A stretch of DNA of 64,000 nt. Source: Hyphomonadaceae bacterium (GTDB lineage: Bacteria > Pseudomonadota > Alphaproteobacteria > Caulobacterales > Hyphomonadaceae). Below the pieces are notes generated by a model, which worked only from the letters and a program-made list of their open reading frames with translations, was not told where the DNA came from and did not search any database. Shown in pieces: positions 5,320 through 33,001 of this stretch. The stretch spans positions 62,001 through 126,000 of the forward strand of contig JANQQC010000013.1 in NCBI GenBank assembly GCA_028285145.1, given 5' to 3'. Every line of letters starts with the position of its first letter. Positions within the stretch are counted from its first letter, which is position 1. The translations under genes were made by a program, and so were the position numbers.

Positions 5320-5760
5320 ATGACAGACCGCGCGCCGCCCGAAGGCTATGATCGACATTTTCGCACATCGAAGTTCACCGACCCTTGGGAGCCTCTGTTT
5401 TCGCAGACAACGGAGCGCCAGGTTTCAATTGGGGTCTGGCTCGGCGAGCCACACTGTAACTCTCGCGGGCTGGTGCATGGCGGCCTGATTGCCTCACTGG
5501 CAGACAATGCGATGGGCCTGTCCTGCGTGACCGCACTCCGGAGCGAGGGGCGGGATGATATTGGCGGGCTCGTCACTGTCACCTTGAACACAGACTACAT
5601 TGGATCAGCTTCGCTTGGGGCGTGGCTGGCGACCGACACATATTTTGTGAAAACGGGAGGCTCGCTCTGCTTTGCGAGTTGTCTCGTCCGCGCTGATGGG
5701 GAGCCTGTTGCGCGCGCCAATGCTTCATTCAAAATCGTCAAAAACAAGCAGGGAGCCTGA
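5320..5760 (+). CDS. PaaI-type hotdog-fold thioesterase
   Basis: This 146-residue protein has the hotdog thioesterase pattern. 'CNSRGLVHGGLIASLADNAMG' corresponds to the conserved HGG(x)xxxLAD active-site helix, and 'LVTVTLNTDYIGSA' is the central strand pair. Members hydrolyse acyl-CoA or aryl-CoA thioesters in the cytoplasm; the substrate is not predictable here. It is divergent from the DNA ligase, with only 29 bases between start codons, and its stop is one base before the GST gene start. The two plus-strand genes are therefore almost certainly one transcript. Confidence 0.85.
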   Translation: MTDRAPPEGYDRHFRTSKFTDPWEPLFSQTTERQVSIGVWLGEPHCNSRGLVHGGLIASLADNAMGLSCVTALRSEGRDDIGGLVTVTLNTDYIGSASLGAWLATDTYFVKTGGSLCFASCLVRADGEPVARANASFKIVKNKQGA

Positions 5761-20844: not shown

Positions 20845-21711
20845 ATGCCCATCAGGAAAGCCGTGTTGCCTGTTGCCGGTTTCGGCACGCGCGTGCTGCC
20901 AGCCACGAAAGTGGTGCCAAAGGAAATGCTGCCTGTCGTGGATCGCCCGGCAATCCAGTATGTAGTAGACGAGGCACTGGCCGCCGGGATCGAACACATT
21001 GTCTTCGTGACGGGACGGAACAAGGGCGCGATCGAGGATTACTTCGACCATTCTTACGAGCTGGAAGAAGCCCTGAAGGCGAAGAACAAGACCGCAATTC
21101 TGGAAGACGTTGAGAAGGCGCGGCTGCCGGCCGGTGCGGCGAGCTTCGTGCGCCAGCAGAGCGCGCAAGGTCTCGGACATGCCATCTGGTGTGCACGCGA
21201 TATTGTTGGAAGTGAACCTTTTGCCGTCTTGCTGCCCGATGTTCTTGTGAAGGCGGCTCCGTCGTGTCTTGCGCAAATGGTCAGCGCGTACGACCAGGTT
21301 GGCGGCAACATTGTTGCTGTTGATGCTGTTCCGGAGGACCGCGTCTCCTCTTATGGCGTGATCGCACCGAAGTCCCGCGATGGCCGCCTGATCGAGATGT
21401 CGGGTATGGTGGAAAAGCCCGCTCAGGCGGACGCGCCATCGAATCTGAAGATCACCGGGCGGTACATTCTCCAACCTGAGATTTTTGATCTGCTCGAAGA
21501 CCAGGATCCCGGTGCGGGGGGCGAGATCCAACTGACGGACAGCATGGCCCGTCTGATGGAGAGCCAGAGTTTCCATGCCTATGAGTATGAAGGGCAGGAC
21601 TATGATTGCGGTTCGAAGATCGGCTACTTCGATGCCGTGCTCGCATACGCCTTGGCAAACGACGAAATCGGCGAAGAAGCCAAAGCGCTTGTTCGTGCCG
21701 CTGCGTCCTAA
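20845..21711 (+). CDS. galU: UTP-glucose-1-phosphate uridylyltransferase GalU
   Basis: GalU makes UDP-glucose from UTP and glucose-1-phosphate for envelope polysaccharides. The 288-residue protein has the nucleotidyltransferase opening 'KAVLPVAGFGTRVLPATKVVPKEMLPV', 'AIQYVVDEALAAGIE', 'QGLGHAIWCA' and 'VEKPAQADAPSNLKITGRYIL', all characteristic of bacterial GalU. CGGAG stands eight bases before the ATG. Its TAA stop interlocks with the TAG stop of the convergent beta-propeller lipoprotein gene (CTAA at 21708-21711). Confidence 0.95.
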   Translation: MPIRKAVLPVAGFGTRVLPATKVVPKEMLPVVDRPAIQYVVDEALAAGIEHIVFVTGRNKGAIEDYFDHSYELEEALKAKNKTAILEDVEKARLPAGAASFVRQQSAQGLGHAIWCARDIVGSEPFAVLLPDVLVKAAPSCLAQMVSAYDQVGGNIVAVDAVPEDRVSSYGVIAPKSRDGRLIEMSGMVEKPAQADAPSNLKITGRYILQPEIFDLLEDQDPGAGGEIQLTDSMARLMESQSFHAYEYEGQDYDCGSKIGYFDAVLAYALANDEIGEEAKALVRAAAS

Positions 21712-22571
21712 GGCGTCGTGGTGATATCCGCCTTGGCGGCGAAGGCGGCCGAAGCGTCAATCTCCATCATTTGTCCCTGACGGGAAAAGAAGAATGTCTC
21801 GCCGTCTTGTGAGATGGCCGGCGCATAGTCGATCAGGCCCGTATTGATGATCGCTCCGAGATTGACAGCCTCGGACCAACCTTCATCGGTACGGTCAGCA
21901 CGAAATATGTCTACGACACCGATCACATCGGGCAGATGTGCATAGAAAAAGACGGACTGACCATCTGGCGTAACCGAGGCGTGCGTGTCGGCCATTTGGG
22001 TGTTAAAGGGGACGGTTTCGACCATCCAGCCGGCCGTTGTCTCTTCTGCGCGATAGATGTCGAACCCGCCGATTCCACGTGTGTGATCGCTGGAGAAAAA
22101 GAACTCGCCATCATCTGTGAAGGAAGGCGACTCCTCGTTGGCACCGGTGTTGATGGCGTTTGACATGGGTCGGAGATCCGAGAGTTCACCGCTCTCGCCA
22201 AGAACGCCTGACCATATGTTTCGGTCACGCCGGCCCGGTCTCTCCGGATGTGGGGCATCGCTCGAATAATAGAGCCGACCATCAAGTCGGGAGAAATGCG
22301 GCGTTGTGTTTGTCTCCCTACGGGGAGCTTGCACAAGCACGGGCTCGCTCCATCCACTGTCTGTTCTGAGCACCATCATCAGGTCGGTTTCGTCGCCGCG
22401 CTGTGCGGCATAGACACGGACAGAGCCGTCGACACTTTCGACCTGCCCATAGTTGCGGTCGCGGGAGCCGAACGATTCCGGATTCGGGAGGAAGAGCTGA
22501 GGTTCGGGTGGATCCTGAGATGGCACCGCACAAGCGGGGATACACAGGCAGGCGATCAATAGCGAGCGCAT
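21708..22571 (-). CDS. PD40 beta-propeller protein, probable lipoprotein
   Basis: This 287-residue protein has a short lipoprotein-like signal (cysteine 14 in 'CIPAC'). Repeated WD40-like (PD40) blades follow: 'GSVRVYAAQRG', 'DGRLYYSSD', 'DDGEFFFSSDHTRGIGGFDIYRA', 'PDGQSVFFYAH' and 'QDGETFFFSRQG'. Such propellers usually act as periplasmic binding scaffolds, and the 'GGFDIYRA' blade is like those in OmpA-associated PD40 proteins. It is divergent from the large lipoprotein gene at 22860, with 288 bases between them that hold the Pho-box-like array. Confidence 0.75.
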   Translation of the reverse strand: MRSLLIACLCIPACAVPSQDPPEPQLFLPNPESFGSRDRNYGQVESVDGSVRVYAAQRGDETDLMMVLRTDSGWSEPVLVQAPRRETNTTPHFSRLDGRLYYSSDAPHPERPGRRDRNIWSGVLGESGELSDLRPMSNAINTGANEESPSFTDDGEFFFSSDHTRGIGGFDIYRAEETTAGWMVETVPFNTQMADTHASVTPDGQSVFFYAHLPDVIGVVDIFRADRTDEGWSEAVNLGAIINTGLIDYAPAISQDGETFFFSRQGQMMEIDASAAFAAKADITTTP

Positions 22572-22702
22572 TTTTTGAACCTCAGAACGCTTCGAACAAA
22601 CGCCGCCATCTATCTGTTGGTCATGACATTTTTATTACGCGAACACGTGCCGAGTGATGCGCACACAACACGCTCTCCATACGATTCCTGAGCGAACTGA
22701 CT

Positions 22703-22742
22703 TTGTCACATTACTGAAATGCAACCGTCATCGAACCGTTAT
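22703..22742 (+). promoter_or_regulatory. tandem Pho-box-like PhoB binding array
   Basis: Four 7-base units begin at 22703, 22714, 22725 and 22736, exactly 11 bases apart: TTGTCAC, CTGAAAT, CCGTCAT and CCGTTAT. They match the CTGTCAT half-site consensus at 5, 5, 6 and 5 of 7 positions, separated by AT/A-rich four-base linkers. A weak -10 candidate, GATAGG (22753-22758), follows ten bases after the last unit, the spacing expected when PhoB replaces the -35 element. The lipoprotein ATG is 118 bases downstream. The start of the divergent PD40 gene is about 130 bases away on the other side. Confidence 0.6.
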
Positions 22743-22859
22743 GCAGCCATGCGATAGGCGCATTGCGGATGCGACTCGCTAGGGAGAGTTGGGCTTTGGC
22801 CTGACGGTGGTGGGAAGTCTCCAGCAGCTCAATCAATCAGCCTTTTCGAGGGGGCATTC

Positions 22860-25754
22860 ATGATTTCCAAGGGTAAACTCAGCCAGATCCTGCTTGCTGG
22901 GGCGGCCGCAACTGTGCTTGCAGCCTGTTCTGATACGTCTATCGCGTCGCCGGGGGTCCCTACACCACCAGGTGGCGGAGGCGGCGGCACACCGCCGCCG
23001 GCTACGAGTGCGGTAGATGTCGTTCCAGCTGGTGGTTGTTACACGGGTACGACCTCCATTACGCTGGATCGTGGAACGCCTAGCGACACGACCGATGACA
23101 TCGTTGCGTGCGCGTTGTCTGGCGTAATTACAGCTGACGTGACTATCCCTGCCAATGCGATTGTTGCTCTAAGCGGAAACGTTCAAGTGGGTGAAGACGG
23201 CGGCACGTCGGCCACGCTGACAATCCGCCCTGGTGCCGTACTCTTCGGATCATCTGGTGCTGACTTCCTCGTCGTTAATCGTGGATCGCAGATTCAGGCT
23301 GAGGGAACCGCCACAAACCCTATCATCATGACGTCTGCATCTGACCTGAATAATGGTGCATCCGCAGACTCTGGTGATGCCGCCGTTGGAGCAATCACAG
23401 ATACCTCAATCCGGGGACAGTGGGGTGGATTGATCCTCAACGGTGATGCTCCGATCAATGCGTGTGACGACGCAACGGCTACCGGCGGAACAGCTGGCTG
23501 TGTGAAGTCCGGCGAGGGTTCGACGGGCGAATTTGGTGGTGCCGACCCAACAGATGACTCAGGGACACTTCGGTATATTCAAGTTCGTTATGCTGGTTTC
23601 GAGATTACGCCAGATAACGAGCTGAACGGTATCGCGTTTCAGGGCACTGGATCCGGCACAGAGGTTGAGTTCATCCAAGTCTACAACAACGCCGATGATG
23701 GTGTTGAGTTCTTCGGTGGAACGACGAACGCTGCGTATATCGCTTTGAACGGCAACGGTGATGACAGCCTCGACTACACCGATGGCTGGGTTGGCTCTGC
23801 CCAATTCATTCTCGTCCAGCATACCGACGATGCGGACCAAGGCTTCGAATTCGACAACAACGGCGACGACAATGCCGCTACGCCACGGTCAAACCCAACG
23901 ATCTCGAACTTCACTATCGTTGGCGACGCAGCCGACAGTGACATCGGTGTTCTGATCCGGGAAGGAAGCGGCGGCACCTTCGTCAATGGGGTCATCACAG
24001 GTCCCTTCTCGGATGGCGCGCTCAATATCGATCAAACCGAGACGTTCGACCGTCTTGGCGCAGGAACAGAGCCGATTGTGCTCGGTTCGCTCTTGTTGGA
24101 CGCAGACGTGGCGATCGTCGAGAATGATGAAGAAGACGCTGACGGTAATCCTATTGCGGACCCGTTTGATCTTAGTGACTTCATCGATGCAAATTTCGAC
24201 AATGTCGTGTCAGATACAGCGACGCTCGTGGACAGCTACTTCCCGGGCATGCGTGAGCTGTCCATACCAACCGTTGATCCAGTCTCGCTCGGTGGTTTCT
24301 TTGTAGCAGCTGACGCGATCGGTGCGTTCAGAACAACTGACGAAGCTGACGCAAACTGGGCCACCGGCTGGACCTTCAATCTTGTAGCCGACGGTACGAT
24401 TGATGAGTGTCCTGCTGGTACAACAGACACCGGTGAGGAAATCGGTGGTCAGAGTGTTTGTGAACTTACAGGTGTGGTTCGGAACGATCTCGAGCTATCG
24501 CCCGGCGTTCTCTACGAATTGGTTGGTAACACGCAGATCGGTGCCGATGCTGGTGCCGATGGGTCAGGTGGCGACCCGGCCATTCTGACAATCAATCCGG
24601 GTGTGACAATCTTCGGCTCGGATGGCGCGGACTTCCTGGTCATTAATCGTGGCTCTCAGATCAGGGCCAACGGTACGGCTGATGAGCCGATCATAATGAC
24701 AGCTCGTGTCGATGTTGAAGGCTTGGCGACGACCACTACACGTGGGGCCTGGGGCGGCCTAATCTTGAACGGCCGTGCCCCGATCAACGCTTGCGACAGC
24801 GCCCTTGCCACTGGAGGTACAGTGGATTGTGTGAAGGCTGGTGAAGGGTCTACCGGCGAGTTTGGCGGTGCCCTTGCCACCGACAACTCGGGTAACCTCT
24901 TCTATACCATCGTAAAGTTCGCGGGTAACGAAATCACGCCTGACAACGAACTCAACGGAATCGCCTTCCAAGGCGTGGGTAGTCAGACAGATGTTGATTT
25001 CATTCAAGTCCACAACAATGCGGATGACGGCGTCGAGTTCTTTGGGGGGACAGTGGATGCCAGTCATGTCGTTCTCACCGGCAACAGGGACGACTCAATC
25101 GACTGGACGGATGGTTGGATCGGCTCGCTTCAATTCGCCATTGTTCAACACAAGGCCGACGATGCTGACCAAGGCATCGAAGCTGACAATAATGGTGATG
25201 ACAATACTGCCACACCGCGGTCGAACCCAACTCTGTCCAACCTGACCTTGATCGGACAGGCCGGTGGAGACAGTGACATCGGTATCCTTTTGCGCGAAGG
25301 GACCGATGTGAAGCTGGTCAATACCATTGCCGTCGACTTCAACGAAGGCGGGCTTGATGTGGACCAGGCGGAGACATTCAACCGTCTCGCGCTGGATGGC
25401 GGTGCCGCTTCGGATCTTACGATTGATCCTGACGGTCTGGTTCTGCGTTCCATCTTCCTCGACAATGTTGTCAACTTCCTCGAGGGCGATGAGGAGGATG
25501 CCGATGGAAACCCAATCGCGGATCCTGCAGACTTGACGGATGGCCTGGAAGCCTCGGTTGTCGGCGGTACGTCTGATCTGTCCGGCCCGACTCTGGTGAC
25601 AGGTGCGCAGGGTCTTGTTCCAGGGACAAACATCACCGGTGCGGTCACGCCTGTTGATCCGCAGGCTGCGCTCGGTCTTGAAGCCGGGGCTTACCTTGGT
25701 GCCGTCGAAGACGCGGATGACACCTGGTATCAGGGCTGGACGTTCACCGACTAG
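22860..25754 (+). CDS. large lipoprotein with two tandem beta-helix-like repeats (ElpS-like candidate)
   Basis: This 964-residue protein begins with a lipoprotein signal ('LAAC', C23) and then a glycine/proline-rich linker with 'PPGGGGGGTPPP'. Two homologous blocks of about 456 residues follow. Each holds 'ADFLVxNRGSQI' (from residues 135 and 591), 'GLILNG.APINACD', 'GEGSTGEFGGA', 'EITPDNELNGIAFQG', 'NNADDGVEFFGGT' and 'DADGNPIADP'. The pattern suggests a right-handed beta-helix with acidic, possibly calcium-binding loops. Position beside the TonB receptor and gsp operon, and the Pho-box-like array upstream, suggest a secreted surface lipoprotein like ElpS of Caulobacter crescentus. That homology is from memory and needs alignment. 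Confidence 0.75.
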   Translation: MISKGKLSQILLAGAAATVLAACSDTSIASPGVPTPPGGGGGGTPPPATSAVDVVPAGGCYTGTTSITLDRGTPSDTTDDIVACALSGVITADVTIPANAIVALSGNVQVGEDGGTSATLTIRPGAVLFGSSGADFLVVNRGSQIQAEGTATNPIIMTSASDLNNGASADSGDAAVGAITDTSIRGQWGGLILNGDAPINACDDATATGGTAGCVKSGEGSTGEFGGADPTDDSGTLRYIQVRYAGFEITPDNELNGIAFQGTGSGTEVEFIQVYNNADDGVEFFGGTTNAAYIALNGNGDDSLDYTDGWVGSAQFILVQHTDDADQGFEFDNNGDDNAATPRSNPTISNFTIVGDAADSDIGVLIREGSGGTFVNGVITGPFSDGALNIDQTETFDRLGAGTEPIVLGSLLLDADVAIVENDEEDADGNPIADPFDLSDFIDANFDNVVSDTATLVDSYFPGMRELSIPTVDPVSLGGFFVAADAIGAFRTTDEADANWATGWTFNLVADGTIDECPAGTTDTGEEIGGQSVCELTGVVRNDLELSPGVLYELVGNTQIGADAGADGSGGDPAILTINPGVTIFGSDGADFLVINRGSQIRANGTADEPIIMTARVDVEGLATTTTRGAWGGLILNGRAPINACDSALATGGTVDCVKAGEGSTGEFGGALATDNSGNLFYTIVKFAGNEITPDNELNGIAFQGVGSQTDVDFIQVHNNADDGVEFFGGTVDASHVVLTGNRDDSIDWTDGWIGSLQFAIVQHKADDADQGIEADNNGDDNTATPRSNPTLSNLTLIGQAGGDSDIGILLREGTDVKLVNTIAVDFNEGGLDVDQAETFNRLALDGGAASDLTIDPDGLVLRSIFLDNVVNFLEGDEEDADGNPIADPADLTDGLEASVVGGTSDLSGPTLVTGAQGLVPGTNITGAVTPVDPQAALGLEAGAYLGAVEDADDTWYQGWTFTD

Positions 25755-25772: not shown

Positions 25773-25811
25773 TCCGGCCCGGCGTTTCTCTGCTGGGCCG
25801 GACTTTGTTTT
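25773..25811 (+). terminator. intrinsic terminator between lipoprotein and TonB receptor genes
   Basis: An 11-base-pair stem (25773-25783 with 25792-25802, one G-T wobble) closes an eight-base loop and is followed by CTTTGTTTT. It starts 18 bases after the lipoprotein stop and ends 26 bases before the receptor ATG, so it should end or attenuate the lipoprotein transcript. Confidence 0.75.
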
Positions 25812-25837: not shown

Positions 25838-28546
25838 ATGTCCAGACTATCCATAGCGTTCAAAAGCGCGCTTCTGCTCTCAACCGCCTGCTTCAGCGTT
25901 GGCATTTCCATCGCGCAGGAAGCGGCAGAACCTGAAGAAGACCGCACCCTGGAAACGGTTGTTGTGCGCGGGGAGTTCATCCCTGATGAGAAGCGCTCGA
26001 CGTCGGAGATTTCCAGCCTGCTGGATTCCGCTGATTTCCAGGTTCAGGGCGACTCCGACGCAGCTGCCGCGCTCCGCCGCGTTACGGGCCTGTCGCTGTC
26101 TCGTGGCAAATTCATATTTGTCCGGGGTCTAAATGAGCGCTATTCGAGCGCAACGCTCAACGGATCGCCTTTGCCGAGCCCCGAGCCACTACGCCGCGTC
26201 GCACCGCTCGATCTGTTCCCAACATCGATTCTTGAGTCGGTACTTGTCCAGAAAACGTACTCGCCAGAGTATTCCGCTGAATTTGGTGGCGGCCTCGTGG
26301 AAATGCGCACGAAGTCGGTGCCTGATGAGCGCTTTCTTGAGGTGTCGTTGTCGGCCGGCGGTAATACCGAAACAACTGGGCAGGATGCGTTGCTCTACGA
26401 TGGTGGCAATACGGATTGGCTCGGTTTTGATGATGGAACAAGGAATATTCCGCCCGTTCTGTCGTCCATTTATACGACCCAGCGGGTGGACTCGCTTCCA
26501 GTCGAGCAACTCACCTTGGCTGGGCGCGAACTGGTCGATACGCCGCTCTGGGTGGTGCAGGAAGGCAATGCTAATGCCGATTTTGGAGCCGCGATTTCGC
26601 TCGGCGAGCGGGTTGATTTCTCGCCTGACGTGTCGATGGGGCTCATAGGCTCGTTGAGCTTTGACAATAGTTGGGACACCAAAATCGGTGAGCGCCGAAA
26701 TCTGCAAGCCAATGTTCGCAACGCAGATGGAACAGGCGGCTCGCTTGGTGCACCGGGCACGACGGTTGAGCTCGAAAGCGAGGACACCTTCAATCGGAAC
26801 TCGACCGAAAACGATATCCGCCTGACAGGGTTCGGCTCAATCGGCTTCGATCTCTATGACGATCACAGTATTGATTTTACGGGTCTTCTAACGCGCTCCA
26901 CAACGAAAGAGGTCCGTAATCTAATTGGCTTTTCCACCGTGGACTTTGCCGATGGCAACCGGGTGCGCGTCGACAAGCTCGAATGGTTCGAGCGCCAAGT
27001 GTACACAGGGCAGGCGCGCGGCGAGCACTATCTGACTTTCCTGGAAAACATCTCCGGCGATCTTGATGATGTCGCGTTCAACTGGCGCGCCTCCTATTCG
27101 GAGGCGTTCCGCGATGCCCCTTATGAACGTGAGGTCGTCTACGAAGAGACGAATGTTGACGATGTGTTCCAGATCGACAGCGCACGCCGAAACACGACGT
27201 CTTTCTCCAAGATTGAGGATAAGACCCAGGACATCGGTGCAGATATCACGATCCCTCTGATCGTTGATTGGCTTCCGGGTGAAGAAGTGGAGCTGAAAGC
27301 GGGCTGGACATACTTCGAGTCCAATCGGGACACGTTGACAAAGATCTATCGCTTCGATGGGACACTGCTGCCGGAGTTTCAGGACCGCCGTGTGGATGTC
27401 ATTTACGGCGACAGCAACATCGGGCCGGGTCGGCTGCAATTACGCGAAGTGGGCGGAAGCTCGTTCCCAGAGGCGTTTCGGGGTGAGCTTGAACTCGACG
27501 CTTACTACTTCAAGGCTGATGTGCAGCTGACGAACTTCCTGCGGATCGCAGCTGGCGTTCGCTACGAAGATTCGCTGCAGACGTCCGACACGTTCAATTT
27601 GACGCTGCCTGATGATGGTCTTCTTGAGGCTGGGATTTCTTCCCAGTACGGCCTGCCAAGCGTTACGGCAACGTGGAACTTCACCGACAATATGCAGGTC
27701 CGCGCCGGTTTCTCGCAGACCATTACTCGTCCTCAGTTCCGGGAGCTGGCGTTCGTTCAGTTCGTGAACTCCGAAACTGATGAGAGCTTCATCGGTAATC
27801 CATTCCTCGTGAATTCAGAAGTCGACAACTTCGATGTGCGCTGGGAGTATTATTTCGCGCGGGACGAGTTCATTACGCTTGGCTTGTTCTACAAGGACAT
27901 CACCAAGCCGATTGAAGAAGTTAGCTTCCGGTTCGGCGATTCAAACATCAACTCTTTCATCAATGCACCGCAGGCAGAACTCTTTGGGTTCGAAGGCGAG
28001 TTCGAAAAGATTCTGCCTATCCAAAACTGGATCGAATCAGATTGGCTGAGGACGAAGGACATCGTTCTGAAGGCAAACTACGCCTACACTGAGAGCGAAG
28101 TCTCAGCGACTGGGGAGGTGATCCGGGCCAGGTTCAACACCGGTACTGTGGAGGCCGACCCGACCTCGGGCGAGGCTTTCATAATCGATGGCCGGAAGCT
28201 GCAGGGGCAGTCAGATCACATTGCGAACGTACAGTTTGGGTTCGATGATGATGTTGCCCGGTCTCAGTTCAGACTGCTTCTGAACTATTCGAGCGAACGC
28301 ATTCGTCGCGCCGAGAACCGGACAGCCAATGAACCAGCGATTATTGAGCAGCTGCCTTTGACCGTGGACATGACATACAAACGCGACTTCGATTTCCGTG
28401 GTGGAGCTTATGAGTTCTCGTTTAGGGTGCAAAACATCTTTGGTGAGAGCTATGAAGCGTTCCAGGAAGGAACGAACCAAGAAGTTGTCGTTGACAGCTA
28501 TGAGCAGGGTCAGGCCTTCTCTGTGGGGATCAAGCGAACGTTTTAA
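25838..28546 (+). CDS. TonB-dependent outer membrane receptor
   Basis: This 902-residue receptor has a signal peptide cleaved near residue 26 and a TonB-box-like 'LETVVVRG' at about residues 38-45. A plug domain follows ('LRRVTGLSLSRGKFIFVRGLNERYSSATLNG', 'EYSAEFGGGLVEMRT'), then a beta-barrel ending in the terminal phenylalanine 'SVGIKRTF' needed for BAM insertion. It imports a ligand across the outer membrane using TonB energy; the ligand is unknown. The ATG at 25838 is chosen because GGGGA precedes it and the signal peptide starts there. Being beside the large lipoprotein suggests that the lipoprotein captures or processes the ligand. Confidence 0.93.
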   Translation: MSRLSIAFKSALLLSTACFSVGISIAQEAAEPEEDRTLETVVVRGEFIPDEKRSTSEISSLLDSADFQVQGDSDAAAALRRVTGLSLSRGKFIFVRGLNERYSSATLNGSPLPSPEPLRRVAPLDLFPTSILESVLVQKTYSPEYSAEFGGGLVEMRTKSVPDERFLEVSLSAGGNTETTGQDALLYDGGNTDWLGFDDGTRNIPPVLSSIYTTQRVDSLPVEQLTLAGRELVDTPLWVVQEGNANADFGAAISLGERVDFSPDVSMGLIGSLSFDNSWDTKIGERRNLQANVRNADGTGGSLGAPGTTVELESEDTFNRNSTENDIRLTGFGSIGFDLYDDHSIDFTGLLTRSTTKEVRNLIGFSTVDFADGNRVRVDKLEWFERQVYTGQARGEHYLTFLENISGDLDDVAFNWRASYSEAFRDAPYEREVVYEETNVDDVFQIDSARRNTTSFSKIEDKTQDIGADITIPLIVDWLPGEEVELKAGWTYFESNRDTLTKIYRFDGTLLPEFQDRRVDVIYGDSNIGPGRLQLREVGGSSFPEAFRGELELDAYYFKADVQLTNFLRIAAGVRYEDSLQTSDTFNLTLPDDGLLEAGISSQYGLPSVTATWNFTDNMQVRAGFSQTITRPQFRELAFVQFVNSETDESFIGNPFLVNSEVDNFDVRWEYYFARDEFITLGLFYKDITKPIEEVSFRFGDSNINSFINAPQAELFGFEGEFEKILPIQNWIESDWLRTKDIVLKANYAYTESEVSATGEVIRARFNTGTVEADPTSGEAFIIDGRKLQGQSDHIANVQFGFDDDVARSQFRLLLNYSSERIRRAENRTANEPAIIEQLPLTVDMTYKRDFDFRGGAYEFSFRVQNIFGESYEAFQEGTNQEVVVDSYEQGQAFSVGIKRTF

Positions 28547-28640
28547 CTCCCGGACAAGCTATTCCCATTAATTAATTAGTCGGCACGATTCATTAACGCT
28601 ATGCCCGCCAATGCTTTGGTTGGTTAAGTTTGGAGGCCGA

Positions 28641-29528
28641 ATGACCCTCAGCAGCGCGCTGTCAGGTCTGAATGTCAATGCAGCCGCGATCTGGCTGAAA
28701 CGAGCCGTGGTTGCGGGCTCGGTCATTGTGCTCGGCCTGATTTCTGCGCGCGCCTTCTGGTTGTTGGCGGACCCGCACGGCGCGGTCTCGAATGAAGTTG
28801 GTGTTGTTTCGATGAGCTCGACCGCTGCAGGTCAACCTGCTCTGCGAGCCGATCTGTCGATCCTGACACGCCTGAACCCGTTCTCCAAGGCAAATGCCGA
28901 ACTAACAGATATCGTTACCGAAGCGCCGGAAACGGCATTGAACCTGGTTTTGTCTGGTCTCAGGGCACAGACGGGTGAGGGGCAGGGATCAGCTGTTATA
29001 AAGACACCCGACAATCTGCAGGCGCTCTACGAACCCGGCGATGAGATACTCGCCGGTGTCTCTTTGGAGCGGGTGCTGAGCGATCGGGTCGAGATTCGGC
29101 GGAATGGGCGCCTTGAAAGCCTGTTTTTGACAGACGCGCGCGGTGCGCTCTCCGTGATTGAGGATCAGGAGACCCGACAAATCGTTTCGGGTGAAGCCGC
29201 CGAACCTGTGTCTCCCGTCGCGCCGAATACGCTCGTCGTCGCCAATATGAGTGAGTTTCTGGCGGCTATTCGATTGGACCCAGTTCGTGCGGACAATGTT
29301 ACAGTCGGGTATAGACTGCTGCCCCGCGACGATGGGTCGGCACTGGCCGCGGCCGGCTTCGAGACAGGTGATGCCGTGCTCGCCATTAACGGCGCAGCGA
29401 TTGGCGACATCGATGGCGAAGAATTTATTGAAGAATTGGAGTCGGCGAGAGGCGCGGATCTGACGGTCTTGCGGGATGGCGAAGAGACCACCCAGCGCCT
29501 CATTGTCGGTGGGAGGACAGAGCCGTGA
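28641..29528 (+). CDS. gspC: type II secretion system protein GspC
   Basis: GspC is the inner membrane protein that links the assembly platform to the secretin. This 295-residue protein has one N-terminal membrane helix ('AVVAGSVIVLGLISARAFWLL', about residues 21-41) and a homology region domain ('LSGLRAQTGEGQGSAVI', 'YEPGDEIL'). The C-terminal PDZ-like domain has 'YRLLPRDDGSALAAAGFETGDAVLAINGAAI'. It opens the gsp operon, 94 bases after the receptor stop. The ATG at 28641 has GGAGG upstream. Its TGA overlaps the GTG start of gspD. Confidence 0.92.
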   Translation: MTLSSALSGLNVNAAAIWLKRAVVAGSVIVLGLISARAFWLLADPHGAVSNEVGVVSMSSTAAGQPALRADLSILTRLNPFSKANAELTDIVTEAPETALNLVLSGLRAQTGEGQGSAVIKTPDNLQALYEPGDEILAGVSLERVLSDRVEIRRNGRLESLFLTDARGALSVIEDQETRQIVSGEAAEPVSPVAPNTLVVANMSEFLAAIRLDPVRADNVTVGYRLLPRDDGSALAAAGFETGDAVLAINGAAIGDIDGEEFIEELESARGADLTVLRDGEETTQRLIVGGRTEP

Positions 29529-31468
29529 ACACACGATTTCTGATGAGCGCTGCGCTCGGTGCGTACGCGGCAGCGCATGCTCAGGCGGAAATGCAGTCGC
29601 CGCAGGCTGCACGGCATATTCTGAACCTTGATGATGTCGAGATCAGCGCGCTGGTCGAAGACGTATCAATGGTGACCGGCTACACCTTCATCGTTCATCC
29701 CGATGTCCGTAAGGTCCGCGTGACCGTGATGTCTCAGACGCCGATGTCGTCCGACGATGTGTTTCAGGTGTTTCTGTCGACACTCCGCGTACACGGGTTT
29801 GCCGCAGTTCCAGCCGGACGGGACACCTACAAGATCATTCCCGAGCAGAGCGCTGTCGGAGAGGCATTCGTTACGGGCTCCGGTCCAAATGCCTTTGTTA
29901 CCGAGATTCTCAAGCTGAACCACTTCAACGCGGTCGAAGCCGCGCAGATGATCAAGCCGCTCATCGATGCTCAGGGACAAGTGGTTGCCAACGCCAACTC
30001 CAATACGCTGGTGGTTGTCGATTACGCGTCGAACCTTTCCAAGCTCCGCACGATTGTCGCAGAACTCGACAAGGATCGTTCTGTCGTCGAGACCGTGGCG
30101 CTGCGCAATGTGCCGGCCTCCGAAATGGAAACTATCCTGAACAAGGTTCAGGGTGAGAGGGCACGCGAAGGCGGGCCACGGATCAATTTCTCCGCCGTGG
30201 CCTCGGAAACCAGCAATTCAATCGTCATTCGGGGCGATGAACTGATGGTCGAGCGCGCCAAGCAGGTCGCGGCTGAGCTCGATCAGACTGATCCAGTGCG
30301 TGACAATATCCGCGTGATCTCACTGAATAATTCCGATGCGGTCGAGATCGTGCCGATCCTTGAGCGTGTCGGCGTAACGATGGCAGCCCGGCAATCGCCG
30401 GGTGAAGGCGGCACGTTTGAGCCAACCATCGCGCATCATGAGCCGACAAACTCTCTTGTGATCAGTGCCAACTACGAAACGCTTCTTGCCATGGAGCGCG
30501 TGATCGAAGCGTTGGACGTGCGCCGTGCGCAGGTGCTTGTTGAAGCGATTATCGTTGAAATGTCAGACGACACCGCGCGTGAGCTCGGCGTTCAGTTCCT
30601 TGTATCGGGAACCGAAGGCGATGCGCCTTTCGCTTCTACCAATTTCTCTCGGTCTGCTCCGAACCTTCTGGCGCTGACGGGAGCGCTCGCGGGCGATGGT
30701 CTGTTCGGGGGCGATGACAGCGTGAACAAGACGTTCCGCGATGCGGCCGTCAGCTCGCTGCTCGGCGCAAATGGTGTGACGCTGGGCTTTGGCGGGCAGG
30801 ATGGCGACACGCTGTTCGGCGCGATCATCAATGCCGTTGAAGACGACACCGAGTCGCGTATCCTCTCTACGCCGTTCGGCATGACACTCGACAATGCAAC
30901 GTCAGCACTCGTTGTTGGTCAGGAAATTCCGATTACGACGGGCGAAGTGCTTGGTGACGCAAATACGAACCCGTTTCGGACCGTTGATCGCAAAGAGATC
31001 GGTGTGAAGCTGAATGTAACGCCGCGGATCGGGGAAGAGGACACTGTTCGACTTGATATCGAGCAGGAGGTCTCGAGCATTTTCGGGTCAGTCAACGCAG
31101 CGACACCCGATCTGATTACCAATCTGCGATCAATTCAGACGAGCGTGATTGCTGACGATGGTGAGATCATCGTTCTGGGCGGCCTCGTTGAGCAGACCGA
31201 GACGGATGTGACCAGCCAGGTGCCGATCCTGGGCGATATTCCGGGCATCGGCCGGCTTTTCAGGTCCGAGGGCAAAGGGCAGACCCGAACAAATCTGATG
31301 GTTTTCATTAAACCGACGATTGTTCGGGACGATTTAGATGCTCGCGCAACAACGGCACAGAAGTACACTTACATACGCGCTGAAGAGATTATGCGTGGCG
31401 GTAGCGATGATAGCTCTCTGGACCGCTTCATTGAGGACGTCGTCGGCTCTACGGTTCCCCGTCGCTGA
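29525..31468 (+). CDS. gspD: type II secretion system secretin GspD
   Basis: GspD forms the outer membrane channel of the type II system. The 647-residue protein has a signal peptide (cleaved near AHA, residue 18-20) and an N0 domain starting 'ILNLDDVEISALVEDVSMVTG'. N1-N3 repeats ('NANSNTLVVVDYASN', 'ETSNSIVIRGDE') come next. The secretin core has 'VGQEIPITTGEVLGD', 'VGVKLNVTPRI'-type 'IGVKLNVTPRIGEEDTVRLDIEQE' and 'VPILGDIPGIGRLF'. No S-domain for a GspS pilotin is obvious. GTG start at 29525 overlaps the gspC stop. Confidence 0.97.
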   Translation: MNTRFLMSAALGAYAAAHAQAEMQSPQAARHILNLDDVEISALVEDVSMVTGYTFIVHPDVRKVRVTVMSQTPMSSDDVFQVFLSTLRVHGFAAVPAGRDTYKIIPEQSAVGEAFVTGSGPNAFVTEILKLNHFNAVEAAQMIKPLIDAQGQVVANANSNTLVVVDYASNLSKLRTIVAELDKDRSVVETVALRNVPASEMETILNKVQGERAREGGPRINFSAVASETSNSIVIRGDELMVERAKQVAAELDQTDPVRDNIRVISLNNSDAVEIVPILERVGVTMAARQSPGEGGTFEPTIAHHEPTNSLVISANYETLLAMERVIEALDVRRAQVLVEAIIVEMSDDTARELGVQFLVSGTEGDAPFASTNFSRSAPNLLALTGALAGDGLFGGDDSVNKTFRDAAVSSLLGANGVTLGFGGQDGDTLFGAIINAVEDDTESRILSTPFGMTLDNATSALVVGQEIPITTGEVLGDANTNPFRTVDRKEIGVKLNVTPRIGEEDTVRLDIEQEVSSIFGSVNAATPDLITNLRSIQTSVIADDGEIIVLGGLVEQTETDVTSQVPILGDIPGIGRLFRSEGKGQTRTNLMVFIKPTIVRDDLDARATTAQKYTYIRAEEIMRGGSDDSSLDRFIEDVVGSTVPRR

Positions 31469-31501
31469 CGGCGCCGGTTTTCGGAGGTAGACTGGATTCC
31501 A

Positions 31502-33001
31502 ATGGAGCCCTCGACACCGCACCGATTGTCCTATGCTTTTGCCAAGGAGAAAGGGCTTGTGGTCATGACTGACCGCGAGCCGCTAACCGTGGGCGTGCGG
31601 ACAGGCGCGGATCCTTATGGGCTTGTCGAGGTTCGGCGTGTAATGGGCCAGCCTTTTGCGCTTGAGCCGCTGGAGCCAACAGTGTTCGAGCGGCACCTTT
31701 CCGAGACCTATGGCCGGAACGATCTTGACGGCGAAGAAGCTGAAGCTGCTTTGGGTCTTGAGAGCGATCTTGAAAGCCTTGTGGACGGAATTCCGCAGGC
31801 TGCCGACCTTCTGGACGGCGACGATGATGCGCCAATTATCCGTTTGATCAACGGTCTCATCTACGAGGCGGTCAAACGCAAAGCCTCCGACATTCATATC
31901 GACCCATTCGAAGAGAAGCTCTCCATTCGATACCGGATCGATGGGTCGCTTCAGGAAGTTCTGACGCCATCGCGCCGGCTTGCGTCTCCTTTGGTCTCAC
32001 GAATCAAGGTGATGAGCCGGTTGGACATCGCGGAAAAACGTATGCCCCAGGATGGGCGGATATCTCTGACGCTTGGAGGGCGCTCACTCGATGTTCGGGT
32101 GGCAACTCTGCCGACGCGATATGGAGAGCGGGTTGCGCTTCGAATTCTCGATACACGCAATGCACTGATCGGGCTTGATCAACTCGGCATGGACGAAGCA
32201 ACGCTTGGCCGTTTCCGTTCGGCGCTGAGCCAGCCTAACGGCGTGATCCTTGTCACCGGACCGACAGGTTCCGGAAAGACCACCACGCTGTACTCAGCAC
32301 TGTCGCTGCTCAACACAGGCAGCGTAAACATCATGACGCTTGAAGATCCGGTCGAGTACGGTCTTGAGGGCATCAGCCAGACACCTATGGACCATAAGGT
32401 CGGGCTCAACTTTGCCGCGACCCTTCGCTCGATCCTGAGGAACGATCCGAACATCGTCATGGTCGGTGAGATTCGCGATGTAGAAACAGCGGAAGTCGCG
32501 CTGGAGTTCGCGCTGACAGGGCGGCTGGCGCTCTCGACCATCCACACAAACAGTTCCGCCGGCGCGATTACCCGCCTGCGGGATATGGGCGTGGAGAGTT
32601 TTCTGCTGGCATCCACGTTGCGCGGTATCCTTGCGCAACGACTGGTACGCAGGCTCTGTCCGTCCTGCCGTGAGCCCTATCAGCCCTCGCCAGACGAGCT
32701 GCAGCTGATGGAGATGGCATCCGAAGACGTCCCGACGCTTTATCGACCGAAGGGGTGTCTTGCATGCGGGAATACCGGCTTCGACGGGCGGCTTGGTGTG
32801 TATGAGTTGCTTACTGTCGATAGCGACATACGAAAGCTCATTCATTCCGGGGCTAATGAGGGTGAGATCGAGCAGGTCGCCTTCCGTGACCACGATATGC
32901 TGTTCCAGAATGGCCTGCGCTACGTTTTGAGCGGCGAAACAAGTCTTGAAGAAGTGCTGCATGTCTGCCGCCGTGAGGGATGGGCTGATGGCGGCGTTTG
33001 A
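31502..33001 (+). CDS. gspE: type II secretion ATPase GspE
   Basis: GspE powers pseudopilus assembly from the cytoplasmic face. The 499-residue ATPase contains Walker A 'GPTGSGKTT' (about residues 253-261), the Asp box 'LEDPVEYGLEGISQ', Walker B 'VMVGEIRDVETAEVA' and the His box 'STIHTNSSAGAITRL'. The C-terminal zinc-binding tetracysteine element has 'LCPSCREP' near 386 and 'GCLACGNTG' near 419. It starts 33 bases after gspD and overlaps gspF by 14 bases. Confidence 0.97.
   Translation: MEPSTPHRLSYAFAKEKGLVVMTDREPLTVGVRTGADPYGLVEVRRVMGQPFALEPLEPTVFERHLSETYGRNDLDGEEAEAALGLESDLESLVDGIPQAADLLDGDDDAPIIRLINGLIYEAVKRKASDIHIDPFEEKLSIRYRIDGSLQEVLTPSRRLASPLVSRIKVMSRLDIAEKRMPQDGRISLTLGGRSLDVRVATLPTRYGERVALRILDTRNALIGLDQLGMDEATLGRFRSALSQPNGVILVTGPTGSGKTTTLYSALSLLNTGSVNIMTLEDPVEYGLEGISQTPMDHKVGLNFAATLRSILRNDPNIVMVGEIRDVETAEVALEFALTGRLALSTIHTNSSAGAITRLRDMGVESFLLASTLRGILAQRLVRRLCPSCREPYQPSPDELQLMEMASEDVPTLYRPKGCLACGNTGFDGRLGVYELLTVDSDIRKLIHSGANEGEIEQVAFRDHDMLFQNGLRYVLSGETSLEEVLHVCRREGWADGGV

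What the first reader, a model, noticed from the sequence alone, without database searches (positions are those of the whole stretch)
22703..22742. Four phased Pho-box half-sites upstream of the giant lipoprotein gene
Seen: TTGTCAC, CTGAAAT, CCGTCAT and CCGTTAT start exactly 11 bases apart at 22703, 22714, 22725 and 22736, each matching CTGTCAT at 5-6 of 7 positions, with a -10-like GATAGG ten bases after. Known: PhoB binds direct 7-base repeats at 11-base spacing and replaces the -35. Inference: the lipoprotein is induced by phosphate starvation. The divergent PD40 lipoprotein start is about 130 bases away on the other side and could share the control.
Basis: partly seen in the sequence, partly recalled or inferred. 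Interest (0 to 1): 0.75.

Follow-up and report, generated by a model that had tools for sequence, protein, structure and literature searches.

The report
Phosphate-starvation switch upstream of ElpS lipoprotein
Four evenly spaced DNA repeats sit in front of a large lipoprotein gene, and similar repeats recur in front of the same gene in most of the related bacteria examined; they are predicted to be the landing pad of the phosphate-starvation regulator PhoB, a link shown by others for the likely counterpart gene in Caulobacter, so this is a well-supported new example of a known kind of switch.

Summary
In detail: half-sites at 22703, 22714, 22725 and 22736 match CTGTCAT at 5, 5, 6 and 5 of 7 positions, 11 bases apart, with GATAGG 10 bases on. 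It is the only placement of its score among 127,922 in the window; shuffles give 0.01 per 64 kb and 0 of 20,000 for the intergenic region. A PhoB matrix from relatives' pst promoters ranks the first pair 2nd of 127,966; the top one lies inside an ORF. Three-repeat arrays at this spacing recur upstream of the gene in 21 of 29, 18 of 18 and 16 of 20 loci, and arrays peak only at 11-base spacing. The neighbouring TonB-receptor upstreams are at background. The gene is the syntenic ElpS homolog. In Caulobacter, elpS production under phosphate starvation (PMC2996285) and PhoB dependence of its promoter (PMC5172544) are published. So: a likely PhoB promoter, new member of a known kind. Against: this genome's own pstS and phoR promoters score weakly, opposite-strand scores are raised in two sets, nothing was measured in this organism. 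Shared control of the divergent PD40 gene is not supported as stated.

The parts
22703..22720 (+). Distal PhoB-like pair: half-sites TTGTCAC (22703-22709) and CTGAAAT (22714-22720)
   Evidence: Matrix score 15.07, 2nd of 127,966 placements in the window; positions and matches
22725..22742 (+). Proximal PhoB-like pair: half-sites CCGTCAT (22725-22731) and CCGTTAT (22736-22742), next to the -10
   Evidence: Matrix score 8.77, 16th of 127,966; in phase with the distal pair
22753..22758 (+). Putative -10 GATAGG, 10 bases after the last half-site
   Evidence: Read; in the window's own family 7 of 29 elpS upstreams have an NATA at offset exactly 10 after the best pair, every other offset 2 or fewer; the other two sets (18 and 20 loci) show no such peak
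22860..25754 (+). ElpS-like lipoprotein, 964 aa, lipobox LAAC; two halves 54% identical
   Evidence: synteny
25773..25802 (+). Terminator-like hairpin (12 pairs, then CTTTGTTTTC) between elpS and the TonB receptor
   Evidence: by a script's own criteria, hairpin plus T-run found after elpS in 14 of 28 family loci
25838..28546 (+). TonB-dependent receptor, counterpart of CC_0171 (start codon uncertain: TTG 25805 or ATG 25838)
28611..33001 (+). gspC, gspD, gspE: first genes of the type II secretion block, which appears to go on to about 39505
   Evidence: C, D, E by profile; later genes read from ORF order only
21708..22571 (-). Divergent PD40 lipoprotein gene
22623..22640 (-). Weak PhoB-like pair GCGTAATAAAAATGTCAT facing the PD40 gene
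   Evidence: Score 8.09; 24 of 127,966 placements in the window score as well
22683..22687 (.). GANTC (GATTC) upstream of the array; a second (GACTC) at 22773-22777
   Evidence: not enriched in relatives

Best explanation
The four phased half-sites are most likely a two-dimer PhoB operator that would switch on the ElpS-like lipoprotein gene when phosphate runs out. Shown here: the array, its 11-base phase, its 10-base distance to a -10-like hexamer, the recurrence of such arrays in front of the same gene in most relatives examined, and a PhoB in this genome whose recognition helix is nearly identical to that of E. coli PhoB. Inferred: phosphorylated PhoB binds head to tail, the proximal pair standing in for the -35 and contacting sigma-70 while the distal pair adds occupancy. 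Inferred from Caulobacter: the lipoprotein goes to the cell surface, is released with the help of the neighbouring type II secretion system, and raises extracellular phosphatase activity. A terminator-like hairpin after the gene suggests that the receptor and secretion genes are mostly driven by other promoters.
For: Uniqueness and phase of the array. Matrix from 18 pstS and pst-operon sites of relatives: site 15.07, 2nd of 127,966. Upstreams of orthologs (the window's own counted among the 29 of its family): summed best scores 321.3 against 114.9 +/- 15.7 in shuffles, 19 of 29 at p < 0.05; with 300 bases, 21 of 29 (family), 18 of 18 (named Maricaulis kin), 16 of 18 (families f4 and f5), 9 of 20 (Caulobacteraceae-like family f2) at p <= 0.05. 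Mean best four-repeat array at spacing 11 is 4.47, 9.98 and 3.00 in sets f1, f4/f5 and f2, against at most -3.54, -2.19 and -3.93 at the seven other spacings. TonB-receptor upstreams are background: elpS higher in 28 of 28, 18 of 18, 17 of 18 and 18 of 20. PhoB: TIGR02154 354.4 bits, cut-off 296.2; recognition helix RTVDVHvgRLRKAL against RTVDVHirRLRKAL in 1gxp. Papers: PMC2996285, PMC5172544, PMC11208175.
Against: This genome's own pst promoters have no good site: pstS 1.8, phoR 6.8. The matrix training sites were picked by likeness to CTGTCAT, so the matrix is not de novo. The opposite strand of the family upstreams also exceeds shuffles (sum 233.6), and opposite-strand maxima pass the 95% control level in 11 of 29 family and 7 of 20 f2 loci, though in 0 of 18 in each of the other two sets. 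8 of 29 family and 11 of 20 f2 upstreams do not reach p <= 0.05 for a pair. The possible near kin of C. crescentus (L157, four GANTC) scores only 4.2. In the window the best-scoring pair is the one farther from the -10, and the offset-10 peak is absent in the other two sets. TGTCA pairs at 11-base spacing are not clearly over-represented genome-wide (7 of 68 exact pairs over 13 spacings). The receptor upstreams used as control are partly elpS coding sequence. No binding or expression data exist for this organism.
Confidence: 0.86

Rival explanations
1. The repeats are a site for another OmpR/PhoB-family regulator that also reads 11-base direct repeats, and phosphate is not the signal.
For: Ten Trans_reg_C matches are in the genome; the own pst promoters fit the matrix poorly.
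Against: The matrix was built from pst promoters of relatives; PhoB dependence of the likely counterpart promoter in Caulobacter is published (PMC5172544).
Confidence: 0.08
2. Chance likeness: the four heptamers are background and the promoter lies elsewhere.
For: Each half-site has 1-2 mismatches; GATAGG is a poor -10 (3 of 6); sites of similar matrix score occur inside ORFs at 5565 and 25061.
Against: 0 of 20,000 intergenic shuffles and 0.01 per 64 kb; phase kept in three lineage sets.
Confidence: 0.04
3. A PhoB site whose main role is on the divergent PD40 gene, or on both genes, rather than on elpS.
For: Short shared intergenic region; a weak minus-strand pair at 22623-22640.
Against: The strong array reads toward elpS, and sites are kept in front of elpS in 18 of 18 named loci in whose held upstream DNA no PD40 homolog was found (0.6 to 5 kb held); where PD40 was found in relatives it is codirectional, 15 of 15.
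Confidence: 0.05

Closest known systems
P169, the elpS (CCNA_00169 / CC_0170) promoter of Caulobacter crescentus
   Same: Same gene neighbourhood (lipoprotein, TonB receptor, type II secretion genes); published induction by phosphate starvation and PhoB dependence (PMC2996285, PMC5172544)
   Different: P169 carries four GANTC sites shielded by MucR; the window has two GANTC and relatives show no enrichment. The lipoprotein here is a tandem duplicate of 964 aa; it is about 480-510 aa in the Caulobacteraceae-like set
Classical Pho boxes of E. coli (phoA, pstS)
   Same: 7-base direct repeats with 4-base linkers, CTGTCAT motif (PMC4415409, passages), near-identical PhoB recognition helix. The 10-base distance to the -10 and the two boxes of pstS are recalled, not looked up
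   Different: Half-sites here depart from the motif at 1-2 of 7 positions each; four in one array
PhoB sites of pstS and the pst operon in the same family
   Same: Same matrix by construction
   Different: Mostly pairs: 4 of 30 pstS and 3 of 22 pst-operon upstreams (the 22 with a pair scoring above 8) have three or more in-phase half-sites, against 11 of 29 for elpS

Membership tests
PhoB-dependent promoter (Pho box) | Direct 7-base repeats, 4-base linkers, same strand | tested here: met
   Four in phase, unique in 127,922 placements; other spacings fail
PhoB-dependent promoter (Pho box) | Half-site sequence fits the clade's PhoB sites | tested here: met
   15.07, 2nd of 127,966; but the genome's own pst promoters fit poorly
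PhoB-dependent promoter (Pho box) | Last repeat about 10 bases before a -10, no own -35 | tested here: inconclusive
   10 bases to GATAGG, only 3 of 6 to TATAAT; no sigma-70 consensus promoter; 7 of 29 family loci share the offset, the other two sets do not
PhoB-dependent promoter (Pho box) | A PhoB with the matching recognition helix in the genome | tested here: met
PhoB-dependent promoter (Pho box) | Conserved in front of orthologs | tested here: met
   weakest in the Caulobacteraceae-like set (9 of 20 pairs, 16 of 20 three-repeat arrays)
PhoB-dependent promoter (Pho box) | PhoB binding and induction in low phosphate | not testable with these tools
   Needs experiment in this organism or a close cultured relative
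ElpS (CC_0170) locus | Lipoprotein followed by a TonB receptor and gsp genes | tested here: met
   Window; relatives
ElpS (CC_0170) locus | Sequence homology to C. crescentus ElpS itself | tested here: inconclusive
   Compared only with unnamed Caulobacteraceae-like genomes (5 tried, 32-38% over the best segments); the C. crescentus protein was not identified by name
ElpS (CC_0170) locus | Surface lipoprotein released in a T2SS-dependent way, no phosphatase activity of its own | not testable with these tools
   Published for Caulobacter (PMC2996285)
MucR/CcrM-shielded GANTC promoter (P169 type) | Cluster of GANTC sites at the promoter | tested here: not met
   Two GANTC in the region; 31 against 36.1 in shuffles for the family, 15 against 27.6 in the Caulobacteraceae-like set, although a MucR and a RAMA-domain protein are present

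The most novel reading that the evidence does not exclude
A phased array of three to four PhoB half-sites is an ancestral, order-wide hallmark of elpS, setting it apart from the mostly two-site pst promoters, so that the lipoprotein, TonB-receptor and secretion block works as one phosphate-scavenging island that PhoB enters through up to two doors: at elpS throughout the order, and in several lineages again in front of gspC. The window's lineage has doubled ElpS into a two-unit protein and lost, or never had, the second door.
Probability: 0.45. Interest if true: 0.45.

Novelty: new member of a known kind. Interest (0 to 1): 0.32.

Why it matters
It carries a regulatory link known from one model species to an unstudied genome and to relatives across the order, with the operator named base by base. 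It makes a clean prediction for cultured Maricaulis-type bacteria: elpS should be among the phosphate-starvation genes, while the TonB receptor next door should not share its promoter. The array form, and the second site in front of gspC in several relatives, give a way to ask why secretion and phosphate scavenging are tied together there.

Tried and rejected
Divergent control of PD40 by the same array: rejected as stated. MucR/CcrM GANTC switch as in Caulobacter: GANTC not enriched. Genome-wide spacing test with exact TGTCA pairs: 7 of 68 at 11-base spacing over 13 spacings, uninformative; the one-mismatch pattern gave 145 against 48 for the reversed pattern, which may only reflect word composition. 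Own pstS, phoR, pstC and phoB upstreams as validation: no clear site; the 10.3 hit upstream of phoB lies inside phoU. A PhoB site in front of gspC in the window: none (best 1.5). Ranking among placements outside all frames of 100 codons or more: first of 302, but only 0.4% of the window is left by that mask, so this adds little. Fold of ElpS: model mean pLDDT 75.7, pTM 0.52, mostly strands; among Foldseek's 10 hits at E <= 0.001, 9 are PL6 alginate lyases and one a beta-1,3-glucanase, with TM-scores of 0.20 or less, so only a hint of a beta-helix; no PDB sequence relative. The 2016 Caulobacter PhoB regulon paper (10.1128/JB.00658-15) is not held, so whether elpS is on its list was not seen. 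Rows dropped or not fetched: L029 had no start found, so 29 of 30 family loci were used, the window's own among them; 30 loci were returned although 55 of 61 family genomes matched; of the order search (150 genomes, 115 with a match) 18 further loci were returned and 20 of the 21 family-f2 genomes listed with a match were fetched; named loci L101-L118 and L122-L139 overlap in species and were counted apart; L119-L121 were not used; the array test left out the named set.

Full report
WHAT IS THERE. Among 127,922 four-repeat placements on both strands of the window this is the single best; 100 dinucleotide shuffles of the window give 0.01 such places on average, 20,000 shuffles of the intergenic region give none, and no other spacing from 8 to 15 exceeds 15 of 28 in that region. 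Ten bases after the last repeat stands GATAGG, a weak -10 by itself; no ordinary sigma-70 promoter is found in 22540-22900.

WHICH GENE. The downstream gene encodes a 964-residue lipoprotein with no Pfam or NCBIfam match, followed by a TonB-dependent receptor and gspC, gspD, gspE and ORFs in the order of a complete type II secretion block (read from ORF order only). This is the neighbourhood of Caulobacter crescentus elpS (cc0170), cc0171 and gspC-N, which the authors also drew for Hyphomonas neptunium (PMC2996285, passages). The order elpS, receptor, gspC, gspD recurs in 17 of the 18 named Maricaulis, Marinicauda, Oceanicaulis and other loci (L114's contig ends after the receptor), and the receptor follows elpS in all other loci that hold that side except L024, whose contig ends. 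The two halves of the window's protein are 54% identical over 446 columns; the homologs in the set that I call Caulobacteraceae-like (family f2, unnamed; the label is my inference) have 482-512 residues, and the five compared match each half. That the organism belongs to the order Caulobacterales is inferred from the named relatives.

IS IT A PhoB SITE. The genome has a PhoB (TIGR02154, 354.4 bits, cut-off 296.2), a PhoU over its cut-off and a PhoR-like kinase (best profile phoR_proteo, 270.1 bits, below its cut-off of 334.2), in one run phoR, pstC, pstA, pstB, phoU, phoB (pstC by profile, pstA and pstB read from the ORFs). Its recognition helix aligns with that of E. coli PhoB in a PhoB-DNA entry (1gxp) with two differences in RTVDVHxxRLRKAL. 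I built an 18-base matrix from 18 distinct sites in the pstS and pst-operon upstreams of family relatives, the window's genome and all elpS regions left out. The sites were chosen by likeness to CTGTCAT (at least 10 of 14 for pstS, 9 of 14 for the operon), so the matrix is not de novo. It gives 15.07 to 22703-22720, second of 127,966 placements; the first (5565) lies inside an ORF and the third (25061) inside elpS itself.

CONSERVATION. In 29 family upstreams, the window's own included, the summed best score is 321.3 against 114.9 +/- 15.7 in shuffles, 19 of 29 at p < 0.05; the opposite strand sums to 233.6, also above shuffles. With 300 bases the counts at p <= 0.05 are 21 of 29, 18 of 18 named loci, 16 of 18 loci of families f4 and f5, and 9 of 20 Caulobacteraceae-like loci. 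Against real windows of the same loci, 24 of 29, 18 of 18, 17 of 18 and 11 of 20 exceed the 95% level; on the opposite strand 11 of 29, 0 of 18, 0 of 18 and 7 of 20 do so, a raised background that I cannot explain for two of the sets. The next gene is an internal control: 200 bases upstream of the receptor score at background, lower than elpS in 28 of 28, 18 of 18, 17 of 18 and 18 of 20; part of that stretch is elpS coding sequence. Arrays of three and four half-sites stand out at spacing 11 and at no other spacing from 8 to 15 in the three sets tested (f1, f4/f5, f2); four-repeat arrays reach p <= 0.05 in 19 of 29, 17 of 18 and 10 of 20, three-repeat arrays in 21 of 29, 18 of 18 and 16 of 20; for the window both give p = 0.005, the least possible with 200 shuffles. 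Downstream of the best pair, half-site likeness peaks at +11 (and at +22 in f4/f5 and f2); in the family an equally high peak stands at +13, which I put down to the -10 region, since it itself looks like a half-site. Runs of three or more half-sites are commoner at elpS (11 of 29) than at pstS (4 of 30) or the pst operon (3 of 22). The sequences are related, so these counts are not independent events.

THE -10. In the family an NATA lies exactly 10 bases after the best pair in 7 of 29 loci, all other offsets having 2 or fewer, for example CTGTTAA, ten bases, GATAG in L018. This matches the spacing of the window's proximal pair and GATAGG, although the window is not among the 7 because its best-scoring pair is the distal one. 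The f4/f5 and f2 sets show no peak at 10.

WHAT IS KNOWN. In C. crescentus ElpS is produced specifically in phosphate starvation (PMC2996285, section read), is surface anchored and released with help of the type II system (abstract), and its overproduction raises extracellular alkaline phosphatase activity although it seems not to be a phosphatase itself (section read). The promoter fusion P169-lacZ is induced by phosphate starvation in a PhoB-dependent way (PMC5172544, passages), and the C. crescentus PhoB regulon includes the type II secretion system (PMC11208175, section read). In the listings I saw no paper whose title or abstract start reports Pho boxes at elpS in Maricaulis or Hyphomonas; the regulon paper of 2016 is not held.

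BEYOND THE FINDING. A terminator-like hairpin separates elpS from the receptor in the window (25773-25802), in line with the separate regulation reported in Caulobacter. Several relatives carry another PhoB-like pair between the receptor and gspC (5 of 17 named and 6 of 20 Caulobacteraceae-like loci at 8.4 or more, up to 22.0 in L144), but the window does not (best 1.5). The Caulobacter-type GANTC cluster is not a conserved part: 31 GANTC against 36.1 in shuffles for the family, 15 against 27.6 in the Caulobacteraceae-like set.

VERDICT. It is a new member of a known kind. The main weak points are the lack of good sites at this genome's own pst promoters, the raised opposite-strand background in two sets and the absence of any measurement in this organism.

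Noticed in passing
window 22860-25754: The ElpS-like protein is a tandem duplicate: its halves are 54% identical, while Caulobacteraceae-like homologs are single units of 482-512 aa. The predicted model is mostly strands, with weak likeness to right-handed beta-helix proteins.
   Followed up: partly
L144, L155, L104 and others, between the TonB receptor and gspC: A second strong PhoB-like pair stands in front of the secretion genes in several relatives (up to 22.0), absent in the window.
   Followed up: partly
L193 1926-1943 (G000:C17 about 60426): TTGACACATAACTGTCAT, score 17.5, stands just upstream of an ORF with a weak YkwD-like match (44 bits, below its cut-off of 171): another possible PhoB target of this genome.
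   Followed up: partly
L040 upstream of phoR; L041 upstream of pstS: This genome's own phoR-pst and pstS promoters lack a clear PhoB site although many relatives have one.
   Followed up: partly
window 21708-22571: The PD40 lipoprotein is divergent from elpS here, but in the 15 relatives' loci with a hit it lies upstream in the same direction.
   Followed up: partly
L157: This Caulobacteraceae-like elpS upstream has four GANTC sites, the number published for C. crescentus P169, and may be that species or its near kin.
   Followed up: no
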